Of a DNA stretch of 64,000 nucleotides, positions 1 to 5,855 are shown one piece after another (positions within the stretch are counted from its first letter, which is position 1; each line of letters starts with the position of its first letter). The position numbers and the translations under genes were made by a program. A model generated the notes under the pieces. That model was not told the origin of the DNA. It ran no database searches and worked only from the letters and a program-made list of their open reading frames with translations. Source of the DNA: Tyzzerella sp. (GTDB taxonomy: Bacteria > Bacillota > Clostridia > Lachnospirales > Lachnospiraceae); assembly GCA_017472665.1 (NCBI GenBank), contig JAFUOS010000001.1, positions 1-64,000 of the forward strand, written 5' to 3'.

Positions 1-375
1 AGAACGGATTTTCTACAGAAGTTATCTACTAAAATGATTCGTGAAAATGATGTCATATGCATTGAGGACTTGCAGGTAAAGAACATGATTCGTAACCACA
101 AGTTGGCAAGAAACATTGCAGATGTTTCTTGGTCAGAGTTTGCCAGACAGTTGGAATATAAGGCGGACTGGTATGGAAGAAAACTTGTAAAGGTAGATAA
201 GTGGTATGCAAGCAGTCAGATATGTAACTGCTGTGGACACCAGTTTCCAATCACAAAGAATTTATCCATACGAGAGTGGATATGCCCAAACTGTTATACA
301 ACCTTAGACAGAGATGGAAACGCAGCAAGGAACATACTGGATGAAGGCAAGAGATTATTGGCTGATGTGGCCTAA
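1..375 (+). CDS. tnpB: TnpB (IS200/IS605-type RNA-guided nuclease), C-terminal part
   Basis: The reading frame is open from the first base of the window, so only the last 124 residues are seen. They carry the C-terminal half of the RuvC-like nuclease (the Glu of CIEDL at about residue 22, the Asp of LDRDG at about 103-105) and a four-cysteine zinc ribbon (CNCC near 75-78, CPNC near 95-98), the signature of TnpB/OrfB. TnpB of this family is an RNA-guided DNA nuclease that helps its IS element persist. The first catalytic Asp and the DNA-recognition domain lie outside the window, so whether the gene is intact cannot be told. It is followed directly by the element's right end and its presumed guide RNA. 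The neighbouring host gene is interrupted by the insertion. Confidence 0.93.
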
Positions 376-4726: not shown

Positions 4727-4732
4727 TGTTGG

Positions 4733-4763
4733 GAGGAATTCGATTTCGGATTCCTCTTTTTTT
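4733..4763 (+). terminator. Rho-independent terminator after pepD
   Basis: GAGGAAT (4733-4739) pairs with ATTCCTC (4750-4756) and is followed by seven T residues (4757-4763). Confidence 0.85.
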
Positions 4764-4787
4764 ATAACTTTGGATTTGACGATGTGA

Positions 4788-4895
4788 TTGCCGTAGGCAA
4801 TGGGCAACGTAAGTTGCCGTCTTTCGAAGAAAGCACAGCGTCAACGAGGGAAAATCGAAGAATTTCTCGAGTCTGGAGCCCTTTTAAAAGTTCAC
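4788..4895. other. String of small perfect hairpins in non-coding DNA
   Basis: Three perfect small stem-loops follow one another: ATTGCC-gta-GGCAAT (4788-4802), GGCAAC-gtaa-GTTGCC (4803-4818) and CTTTC-gaa-GAAAG (4821-4833). A looser CGAG...CTCG pairing (4855-4870 region) and CTTTTAAAAG (4881-4890) come next. There is no long open frame with a ribosome site. The stretch abuts the first 177-nt structured element and may belong to the same non-coding module. Confidence 0.5.
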
Positions 4896-5072
4896 GAAAG
4901 AATGTCTGCCCATGACAAGCCTCGAAGTTCCGCTTTACCTTAGCTCATCCACGAATATATAAGACTCCGAGGGAGTCGCCGTGTGGGGCTCGTCCCTCGC
5001 AGCCTAACATCTTCGGGATGTATCTTCGGAACGCTCCACTTACCTCGTCTTATCATGGGCAGACATTCTTTC
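4896..5072 (-). ncRNA. Structured 177-nt element, copy 1 (minus orientation), unknown family
   Basis: Bounded by a 24-base inverted repeat: 4896-4919 is complementary to 5049-5072 except one position, which is a U.G wobble only if the minus strand is transcribed. Read on the minus strand, the interior contains TAAGTGGA (5042-5035) and a conserved 34-nt core (5007-4974). The core matches the second copy at 27 of 34 positions without gaps. The closing stem has no sequence similarity to that of copy 2 although both are long helices. I see this as a folded RNA or a mobile structured DNA element. I do not recognise its family, and transcription is inferred. Confidence 0.6.
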
Positions 5073-5117
5073 TGAATCTTGTAAAAATTCCGGGCGGCTA
5101 AGTTTACTTGTTCGAAT

Positions 5118-5409
5118 TTACCTACTGGCCATCTGCGATTTTCAATCCAGCAGGTAGTAACTTGCACAACTATTTTATCATTACATGCTATGTTAAACTT
5201 TCATATAGCACAATAGGTAAAACTAGCGCAGTGTTCCTTGAAATTACCAACTTAACATCTCTATGCATCCACAAAGTAGGTAAACATGCTGATGGTGACT
5301 TGGATTTTACCTGCTACATACCAAATATGTCTTACTTAGTAGGTAATTCGTTTTTACATGACATTTCTCTTACCTGCTATCTGTGCGTCTTACTATCCCG
5401 CGTAGGTAA
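5118..5409 (+). repeat. Five-unit dyad-repeat array, exact 63-bp period, variable loops and linkers
   Basis: TTACC-type left arms start at 5118, 5181, 5244, 5307 and 5370. GGTAA-type right arms end at 5157, 5220, 5283, 5346 and 5409. Each unit is thus exactly 40 bases, and the linkers are exactly 23 bases. Units can fold: unit 4 has a 10-bp stem TTACCTGCTA/TAGTAGGTAA with a 20-nt loop, unit 5 has 8 bp, unit 3 has TTACCaACTT/AAGTaGGTAA, and unit 1 has TACCTaCTGG/CCAGcAGGTA. Unit 2 has an internal loop (TGCTAT/ATAGCA). Inner pairs change together between units. Loops and linkers are unrelated in sequence. G-T pairs at 5313/5340, 5376/5403 and 5118/5157 would be wobbles only in a plus-strand RNA. 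It is not a classical CRISPR: conserved parts are only 8-10 bases and alternate in orientation. Confidence 0.8.
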
Positions 5410-5519
5410 TCCTTCTAGCAAATCCCGAATCTGATGAAATGTCCGACAGATAAGTTTGCTTACTCGACTTTGCTTCGCACTCAACAAGCTAGCAAAGTTC
5501 CAGCATTCATATACGAACA
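5410..5519. other. Non-coding stretch between dyad array and structured element copy 2
   Basis: No gene seen. It contains CTTTGCT...AGCAAAG (5468-5497), which could fold, and CTAGCAAA twice (5415 and 5489). It also carries TAAGTTTGCTTACTCGA (5452-5468), which resembles TAAGTTTACTTGTTCGA just before the array (5099-5115), so both edges of the array share a related 17-base sequence. Confidence 0.45.
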
Positions 5520-5696
5520 GAAGAAATTAAGATATATCCTGAAACGAAAGTTAAGTGGAAGTGACGGAGAATCCGTCGTGTAGCCGTTAGGTTGTGAGGT
5601 AGGAGTCCCTCACGACGACTAGCTCAGAACCTTACGGATACTAGACTAGTCGGAGTCAATGGAGCGTTGGAGTGAAGGATATATCTTAATTTCTTC
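5520..5696 (+). ncRNA. Structured 177-nt element, copy 2 (plus orientation), unknown family
   Basis: A perfect 21-base inverted repeat (5520-5540 with 5676-5696) closes a 177-nt element, exactly the length of copy 1. Inside are TAAGTGGA (5552-5559), a GACGG-agaat-CCGTC hairpin (5563-5577), and the 34-nt core 5587-5620 with GTGAGG/CCTCAC hairpin. CGACTAG and CTAGTCG also lie downstream and could pair. CCGTTAGG (5584-5591) and CCTTACGG (5630-5637) could pair across this, giving a possible pseudoknot. The core is shared with copy 1, but the closing-stem sequence is not. I do not recognise the family. RNA function is inferred from helix conservation. Confidence 0.6.
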
Positions 5697-5782
5697 GTCC
5701 GTCTATGAACTCGATAAATCCAATGTTATCCCAACATTTTTGTGATAATTCCATGAAGAGTATTAAAAAAAGATAAAAGCCA

Positions 5783-5810
5783 TTGCATAAATATCCATTT
5801 TTTGTATAAT
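5783..5810 (+). promoter_or_regulatory. Vegetative-type promoter for the DUF5685/J/Hsp70 cluster
   Basis: TTGCAT (5783-5788), 16-base spacer, TATAAT (5805-5810), about 45 bases before the first gene of the cluster. Confidence 0.65.
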
Positions 5811-5855
5811 TGACAAGAGTAAAATGCAACAAATAGGTCGAAAGGAACAACATAC

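What the first reader, a model, noticed from the sequence alone, without database searches (positions are those of the whole stretch)
5118..5409. Exact 63-bp array of dyad hairpins with variable loops and linkers
Five units keep a perfect 63-bp period (40-nt dyad unit plus 23-nt linker), yet only the 8-10-base arms are conserved, and these alternate in orientation. The 20-nt loops and 23-nt linkers show no similarity to each other. Inner stem bases change together between units (GCTA/TAGT, ACTT/AAGT, CTGG/CCAG), which supports selected pairing. The spacing of arms averages 31.5 bp, three helical turns. A constant-length, variable-content array of this kind is reminiscent of guide arrays (CRISPR, TIGR), but it fits none that I know, as conserved parts are too short for CRISPR and variable parts too long for TIGR.
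Basis: partly seen in the sequence, partly recalled or inferred. Interest (0 to 1): 0.92.

Follow-up and report, generated by a model that had tools for sequence, protein, structure and literature searches.

The report
Phased DNA arrays with partner nuclease
The odd 63-base repeat array is one scattered copy of a DNA element whose short mirror-image sites recur every whole number of turns of the double helix, and in many gut bacteria such arrays sit right beside a gene for an undescribed protein of the DNA-cutting type that seems to be their partner.

Summary
The array is real: ten arms alternate at an exact 63-bp period; 60 shuffles never exceed two. It is not a guide array: apparent stem covariation vanishes when arms are shuffled within genomes, arms are kept while loops and linkers drift, and the dyad centre is AT-rich. 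The architecture recurs in Clostridia (70 of 83 stretches). Guilt by association led to a PD-(D/E)XK-like protein family without a Pfam name, found in 126 of 397 genomes of the window's family. Beside its genes lie strictly alternating arrays with lineage-specific arms: six or more sites in 59 of 99 loci, against 0 of 655 control pieces. Periods fall on 5, 6, 7 or 8 helical turns (71 arrays, mean deviation 0.71 bp). Array-only copies lie elsewhere in the same genomes. Best reading: a nuclease with helically phased cognate arrays and dispersed satellites, working like RAYT/BIME but unrelated to it; the window holds one satellite, whose own partner was not found. Binding, cutting and mobility are inferred.

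The parts
5118..5409 (.). Array of five 40-bp dyads (ten alternating arms, consensus TTACCTRCT / AGYAGGTAA), exact 63-bp period: read as a satellite copy of a nuclease-cognate array
   Evidence: second copy at G000:C8:11588-11909
5118..5157 (.). dyad 1 (right arm one mismatch)
5181..5220 (.). dyad 2 (both arms one mismatch)
5244..5283 (.). dyad 3 (left arm one mismatch)
5307..5346 (.). dyad 4 (both arms exact)
5370..5409 (.). dyad 5 (right arm one mismatch)
5085..5119 (+). left copy of an imperfect direct repeat that brackets the array (71% to 5437-5471)
   Evidence: family D1
5437..5471 (+). right copy of that direct repeat
   Evidence: family D1
4881..5086 (.). module A: about 205-bp imperfect palindrome, multicopy in this genome; a separate repeat that houses the array here, not part of the array itself (the C8 copy lacks it)
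5502..5730 (.). module B: about 230-bp palindrome, multicopy; a 49-nt piece of some B copies matches A in reverse at about 80%; houses the array on the other side
4761..4878 (+). module C: repeat also found beside B fragments at G000:C4:55635 and C27:73712

Best explanation
The window array is a dispersed satellite of a two-part DNA system found across Clostridia. Part one is a PD-(D/E)XK-like protein of about 265 aa. Part two is its cognate array, usually just 5' of the gene: short non-palindromic sites in strictly alternating orientation, spaced so that every repeat is a whole number of helical turns (5, 6, 7 or 8), which puts all sites of one orientation on one face of double-stranded DNA. 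Each protein lineage has its own site sequence and period. Proposed working, inferred: protein dimers bind the two inverted arms of a dyad across a bent A-tract, neighbours stack at a fixed turn number into a regular nucleoprotein array that controls the protein's own gene, and cutting by the nuclease lets arrays be copied to other intergenic places, as RAYT is thought to do for REP/BIME. Shown by sequence: array, geometry, protein-array linkage, tracking of period and site with the protein, satellites. Inferred: binding, cleavage, autoregulation, mobility.
For: Architecture recurs: 83 stretches in genome contigs, 70 of them labelled Lachnospiraceae or another clostridial name. A protein near arrays emerged without prior choice from 479 ORFs, 0-300 bp from an array in six genomes; in L084 it lies between two arrays. 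Homologs in 21 of 24 clostridial genomes with the pattern or dyads and 0 of 6 others; leaving out the six genomes that built profile A1, 15 of 18, against a family background of 126 of 397. Arrays of at least 6 alternating sites at 59 of 99 homolog loci (63 flanks, two searched per locus where long enough); 39 of 69 among loci picked by protein score alone. Controls at that threshold: 0 of 94 shuffled flanks, 0 of 66 window pieces, 0 of 79 and 0 of 416 other pieces. Repeat in 14 new loci from a class-wide search: at least 5 sites in 12. Periods quantised: 71 arrays, R 0.864 at 10.5 bp, 1 of 71 in the gaps; for the first 59, 20,000 uniform draws reach 0.498 at most against 0.875. Period class follows the protein tree, 12 changes against 23.9 shuffled, 0 of 200 as low; arm similarity rises with protein identity (Mantel rho 0.121, 22 of 2000 as high). 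AT-rich dyad centre. Satellites: 12 RGIG5941 copies share a 3-dyad layout with the array 5' of that genome's nuclease gene; in G268, 16 of 31 pattern matches lie away from the cognate gene.
Against: The own genome's only homolog (C13, L192) has no called array and no TTACCTACT arms nearby, so the cognate protein of the window's array is not identified; the assembly is 65% complete. 40 of 99 homolog loci have no array of at least 6 sites. Three clostridial pattern-bearing genomes lack the protein. Of 11 loci with five sites only, one has a 38-bp period that fits no whole turn and two have 106 bp; L291 was called at 108 bp and counted as 2 x 54. The best-fitting quantum is 10.7, and nearby values fit almost as well. 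The Mantel correlation is weak. No empty site was found: genus relatives keep the upstream gene but not the neighbourhood. No target-site duplication was seen by eye, and 4 of 12 RGIG5941 copies share sequence beyond the outer arms. The nuclease call rests on profile hits and motifs; structure prediction was off and the PDB gave nothing.
Confidence: 0.72

Rival explanations
1. Guide-RNA array (CRISPR- or TIGR-like): 40- or 63-nt RNAs with variable loops and linkers as guides.
For: Constant length with variable content; the + strand of the array folds better than shuffles (z -3.3); TIGR arrays also flank their protein gene (passages of PMC12045711).
Against: No within-genome stem covariation; minus strand folds like shuffles (z -0.6); variable parts drift or are tandem-identical instead of being exchanged; periods are whole helical turns; partner is PD-(D/E)XK-like, no Nop, RuvC or HNH family among the hits; no Rfam match at gathering score. 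Loops were not compared with phage DNA one by one; the whole region had no distant blastn match in phages or plasmids.
Confidence: 0.04
2. Host-serving architecture or regulation: arrays are sites for a DNA-organising protein (BIME-2/gyrase-like roles) and the PD-(D/E)XK protein is its domesticated binder; no mobility.
For: Helical phasing and AT-rich dyad centres; tandem, convergent and divergent gene contexts in 41, 8 and 4 of 53 arrays with both neighbours called.
Against: Patchy: the two-unit TTACC pattern is in 2 of 397 family genomes, arms are lineage-specific, up to 7 matches of the protein per genome; dispersed copies diverge.
Confidence: 0.17
3. Defence: the nuclease is an anti-phage effector and its arrays are operator, decoy or sensor.
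For: All 33 aligned members match the C-terminal part of PADLOC candidate PDC-S68.
Against: The match is to the C-terminal domain alone, not to the protein of about 1200 aa; satellites far from the gene are unexplained. Neighbours were not tested for defence genes.
Confidence: 0.1
4. Ordinary tandem duplication of an upstream promoter element, with no link to the protein.
For: Several arrays are near-identical tandem repeats.
Against: In diverged arrays only the arms are kept; whole-turn periods, period and arm tracking the protein, and 0 of 655 control pieces.
Confidence: 0.03

Closest known systems
REP / BIME / REPIN with RAYT (TnpA-REP)
   Same: Intergenic repeats in alternating orientation, some flanking the partner gene on both sides, many dispersed copies, repeat sequence specific to each partner (passages of PMC2817692 and PMC8266576).
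   Different: RAYT is an HUH enzyme acting on single-stranded hairpins with a GTAG-type foot (same passages); here the partner is PD-(D/E)XK-like, the sites are short and not palindromic themselves, and spacing is fixed in whole helical turns.
TIGR-Tas arrays (dual-repeat and stem-loop)
   Same: Array next to a single protein gene; alternating short conserved pieces with variable content.
   Different: TIGR: 8-12-nt repeats, 9-nt spacers, box C/D, Nop protein, processed 36-nt RNAs (passages of PMC12045711). Here 20- and 22-24-nt variable parts, inverted copies of one site, no Nop hit.
BOX / STAR / ERIC-type intergenic repeats
   Same: Modular, multicopy, intergenic (recalled; for STAR the start of an abstract in a listing).
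   Different: No partner nuclease or whole-turn geometry is known to me for these (recalled, not searched).
PDC-S68 (PADLOC candidate)
   Same: Similarity to its C-terminal part in 33 of 33 members.
   Different: PDC-S68 profiles are 1202-1273 positions long; ours is a stand-alone protein of about 265 aa with another N-terminal part.

Membership tests
REP/BIME-RAYT | partner is an HUH/Y1 transposase | tested here: not met
   no Y1/HUH family among the hits of the array-linked protein: Pfam, PADLOC and PHROGs for 33 members, NCBIfam for 4 members. Whether the genomes hold RAYTs elsewhere was not searched
REP/BIME-RAYT | each repeat is itself a palindrome of 20-50 nt preceded by GTAG or the like | tested here: not met
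   arms are about 8-10 bp; GTAG or CTAC is in the window's arms but in only 8 of 59 arm consensus strings by my count; a few arms (such as TACGTA types) are partly self-complementary
REP/BIME-RAYT | alternating arrays and dispersed intergenic copies cognate to the partner gene | tested here: met
TIGR-Tas | Nop-domain protein | tested here: not met
   no Nop family
TIGR-Tas | about 9-nt spacers | tested here: not met
   variable parts are about 20 and 22-24 nt
TIGR-Tas | array processed to 36-nt RNAs | not testable with these tools
   no RNA data
CRISPR | 25-36-nt direct repeats with unique spacers | tested here: not met
   conserved parts about 9 bp in alternating orientation
CRISPR | adjacent cas genes | tested here: inconclusive
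   the only recurrent neighbour family of nuclease type is the one described; single neighbours were not annotated
PD-(D/E)XK nuclease superfamily | E ... PD ... E-type catalytic motif | tested here: met
   RSK-x-E, (P)DF, E-H-x-G: E156, D194, E209, H210 invariant in 33 of 33; PADLOC HEAT_CxxC_PD-DEXK in 19 of 33; PHROG Holliday junction resolvase or endonuclease families in a few members
PD-(D/E)XK nuclease superfamily | fold and nuclease activity | not testable with these tools
   structure prediction switched off; no PDB relative
Rfam structured RNAs | gathering-score match | tested here: not met
   0 matches in the window; three hits at E 3.7-3.8 only, far below gathering score

The most novel reading that the evidence does not exclude
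A new class of self-dispersing DNA element in which a PD-(D/E)XK nuclease, unrelated to any transposase, reads an array of inverted sites in discrete helical turns (5, 6, 7 or 8, fixed by protein lineage), forms a one-faced nucleoprotein assembly on it, and spreads array-only satellites through the host chromosome.
Probability: 0.45. Interest if true: 0.95.

Novelty: categorically new. Interest (0 to 1): 0.9.

Why it matters
It links an abundant, unnamed nuclease-like family of gut and rumen Clostridia to cognate DNA arrays whose spacing is quantised in turns of the helix. That is a natural ruler for protein-DNA geometry: dozens of protein-site pairs, four turn classes, and a clear half-turn test. 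If the satellites are mobile, REP-like spread has arisen twice with unrelated enzymes.

Tried and rejected
Rfam, plasmids and phages by distant blastn: nothing. DNA search of the whole intergenic region in 60 relatives: only the own genome matched. Viral contigs: two loci with the bare pattern and no shared sequence, one remote protein relative (L202; no array called). Single dyads TTACCTACT-N22-AGTAGGTAA with up to 2 mismatches: 14 of 397 family genomes, but only the own genome (9), G425 (46) and G251 (4) have more than one; single matches occur about as the reversed control pattern does, and were set aside as chance. RNA hairpin idea: dropped. Loose k-mer finder (at least 4 sites) hit 79 of 83 control pieces and was discarded for the strict caller. 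The shuffles keep base composition only. Empty-site search in the genus: no synteny downstream. Target-site duplications in RGIG5941 copies: looked at by eye, none seen. Structure: tool off. Literature: ten searches showed no paper tying a PD-(D/E)XK protein to such arrays; only fetched comparison papers, searches listed 12 of 424 and 10 of 766, no bioRxiv preprint library is held, so this is no proof of absence. A 2025 REP survey (PMC12306157, term search) has no 'lachnospir', 'clostridi' or 'nuclease' in its main text. Dropped before counts: 13 loci of 11 genomes without a clostridial label before (L075, L080, L083, L085, L089, L116, L117, L124, L127, L128, L133, L138, L147), as likely chance or coding repeats; L153-L155 were not; six of the 20 class-wide loci (L296, L297, L299, L303-L305) as repeats of loci already counted.

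Full report
Observation. The intergenic region 4727-5855 of the window holds five 40-nt dyads at an exact 63-bp period, with arms TTACCTRCT / AGYAGGTAA in alternating orientation. The chain of ten alternating arms is far beyond chance: 60 Markov shuffles of the 64 kb give at most two; the two-unit pattern is matched twice, never in 100 shuffles. A second copy lies on contig C8 (87% identity); between the two copies arms differ at 4 of 90 bases, loops at 17 of 110 and linkers at 21 of 115.

Setting in this genome. The window is part of a 1.66-Mb, 65%-complete assembly in 29 contigs. Its family is given only as a code; I take it for Lachnospiraceae because G425, in the same family, has contigs of the same lengths as RGIG3866, labelled Lachnospiraceae. 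Here the array sits between two long palindromic modules, A (4881-5086) and B (5502-5730), each present in many copies, several at contig ends. They are not part of the array: the C8 array copy has neither, and other A-B pairs look empty (L033, L040) or hold a second array type with arms TTCTTACCAT / ATGGTAAGAA and a period of 63-64 bp (L026, L027, L046), found at eight places.

The architecture recurs. The two-unit pattern is found in 2 of 397 genomes of the family, the own one and G425. A slightly relaxed pattern finds 83 stretches in genome contigs, 70 of them with a clostridial label, most of these MAGs called Lachnospiraceae or Clostridiales. In the first 80 of these loci plus the two own ones there are 99 arrays with 342 units; periods are 63 (174), 62 (50), 64 (12), 65 (5) and 61 (2) (search and chaining admit only 61-65). 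In the loci shown (output was cut) loops and linkers differ between genomes; arms vary between genomes but match each other within an array (TTACCTACT, TTACCGCC, TTACCATTG, TTACCATGAG, TTACCACACG).

Not a hairpin array. Over 100 non-redundant units, symmetric positions 6-9 pair far above chance, loop positions 12-20 and linkers do not. With shuffling only inside each genome (110 units, 17 genomes) the signal is gone: position 6 p 0.03, the other 14 positions not significant. So each genome uses one site sequence in two orientations. The two central positions of the dyad are AT-rich with AA/TT steps (W 0.81 and 0.83, against 0.5-0.7 in the rest of the loop); the linker centre is not (W 0.55), though linker ends next to the arms are (64 loops, 55 linkers). 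I read this as a property of bent double-stranded DNA.

A partner protein. ORFs of the array loci (479) were clustered without prior choice. Six clusters passed the cut: ABC transporters in nine genomes, a MATE-type transporter in four, translation genes in three (two clusters), a repeat protein in two, and one unnamed family in six genomes, 0-300 bp from an array in each; in L084 it has arrays on both sides. It has no Pfam family (6 and then 33 members) and no NCBIfam family (4 members scanned). Its C-terminal half matches PADLOC candidate PDC-S68 in 33 of 33 members, and HEAT_CxxC_PD-DEXK in 19 of 33; E156, D194, E209 and H210 (L084 numbering) are invariant in 33 of 33. It occurs in 21 of 24 clostridial genomes with the pattern or dyads and in 0 of 6 other pattern hits; without the six genomes that built the profile, 15 of 18, against 126 of 397 in the family at large. 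Class-wide, 38 of 391 genomes have a match, 28 of them outside the family; many of the weaker ones cover the C-terminal half only.

Protein and array go together. A strict caller (8-mer, at most one mismatch, strictly alternating, constant period left free between 35 and 110 bp) was run on both flanks of the 99 homolog loci fetched up to then. At least five sites: 70 of 99; at least six: 59; at least seven: 50. Of the 59, 20 are among the 30 loci from genomes chosen for arrays and 39 among the 69 loci chosen by protein score alone. Controls with at least six sites: 0 of 94 shuffled flanks, 0 of 66 window pieces, 0 of 79 pieces from other loci and 0 of 416 pieces far from arrays; with at least five: 0, 0, 2 and 1. 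The controls are single pieces of about 840 bp, while each locus offered up to two flanks; counted by flank, 63 flanks have at least six sites. The array is 5' of the gene in 51 of 59; seven loci have arrays on both sides. Fourteen further loci from the class-wide search give arrays of at least five sites in 12; ten of the 14 are outside the family and nine of those have an array.

Whole helical turns. Periods of the 59 arrays are 51.5-54 (28), 56 (1), 62-64 (23), 71-75 (5) and 84-86 (2); the resultant at 10.5 bp is 0.875, and 20,000 sets of uniform draws reach at most 0.498. Adding the 12 class-wide arrays (one of five sites, and L291's 108 taken as 54), 71 in all, the mean distance to a multiple of 10.5 is 0.71 bp (2.6 expected) and 1 of 71 lies in the gaps 55.5-60.5, 65.5-70.5 and 76-81.5. 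Some arrays come from one genus (such as L259 and L302) and are not independent. The best-fitting quantum was 10.7 bp. Of the 11 loci with just five sites, ten lie within about 1.2 bp of a whole turn (two of them at 106 bp) and one, at 38 bp, does not. Period class follows the protein tree (12 changes, shuffled mean 23.9, 0 of 200 as low), and all 99 protein pairs at least 45% identical differ by under 3 bp in period (these pairs are not independent). Arm sequence follows the protein more loosely (Mantel rho 0.121, 22 of 2000 as high).

Satellites. G425 has 33 two-unit matches and two homologs of the protein. Of 13 aligned RGIG5941 (JAFWPB) arrays, 12 share a three-dyad layout with a longer first linker, including the array 5' of the nuclease gene (L091); identities between these 12 are 62-98%, and 63-73% to the nuclease-adjacent one. 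By eye, eight of the 12 share nothing beyond the outer arms; four (L093, L143, L145, L148) share about 130 bp more on one side, and L093 and L143 also on the other. In G268, with a 52-bp class, 15 of 31 pattern matches are at the nuclease (C8), one on C13 and 15 at two places on C27; none in ten other genomes. By a rough ORF caller, 63 of 78 arrays overlap no open frame of 100 aa or more; contexts are tandem 41, convergent 8, divergent 4 of 53 with both neighbours called.

Mechanism. Best-supported: a DNA-binding PD-(D/E)XK protein with a helically phased cognate array. Shown by sequence: linkage, geometry, tracking of period and site with the protein, satellites. Inferred: that the protein binds the arms, that neighbours stack on one face, that the 5' array regulates the gene, that cutting drives satellite spread. 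It works like REP/BIME with RAYT (passages of PMC2817692 and PMC8266576) but is no member: the enzyme class and the repeat type are different.

The window itself. The cognate protein of its TTACCTACT-type array was not found. Proteins with that arm class in other genomes (L174, L175, L177, L179, L181, L203) lie in one clade of eight, together with L204 and L256, which have other arms. The single own homolog (C13:56918-57685) groups, on a long branch and with support 87, with L191, whose array has the same arms as this genome's second array type, and with L260 and L262. Its own flanks carry only irregular GGGTAT / ATACCC dyads. With 65% completeness and contigs breaking at repeats, a missing partner is plausible but not proven.

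Novelty. Ten literature searches showed nothing on this pairing in their listings; most subscription journals and the preprint library are not held.

Noticed in passing
window 4881-5086 and 5502-5730; G000 C1, C3, C4, C8, C14, C20 and others: Long palindromic modules A and B, partly related to each other in inverted orientation, in many copies and often at contig ends; two different array types sit between them, other A-B pairs look empty. Possibly a composite mobile element with an insertion-prone centre.
   Followed up: partly
L192 (G000:C13), 1270-1395 and 2484-2622: The own nuclease homolog has GGGTAT/ATACCC dyads with A- or T-rich centres on both sides, irregularly spaced: perhaps a decayed or third site class.
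   Followed up: partly
L192 2290-2450 and 2670-2890: Two families of short direct tandem repeats downstream of the own nuclease gene (seen by eye).
   Followed up: no
G251: C18:8475, C29:148773, C32:58243, C39:5020: Four scattered single dyads TTACGTACT-N22-AGTACGTAA with the same 40-bp outer size; this genome has four matches of the protein.
   Followed up: no
L093, L143, L145, L148 (JAFWPB): Four satellites share about 130 bp of extra flank on one side (L093 and L143 on both), so the copied unit can be longer than the array.
   Followed up: no
window 34-375: A 113-aa open frame that reads like the zinc-ribbon end of a TnpB protein of the IS200/IS605 type (recognised from memory, no search).
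   Followed up: no
L164 (G307:C49): A control locus gave a five-site 63-bp call with GGTGGGTA arms, perhaps a true array in a genome that is not in the list of genomes with the protein.
   Followed up: no
Genome-contig loci: Many array-bearing genomes are MAGs whose labels name ruminant or other animal guts.
   Followed up: no
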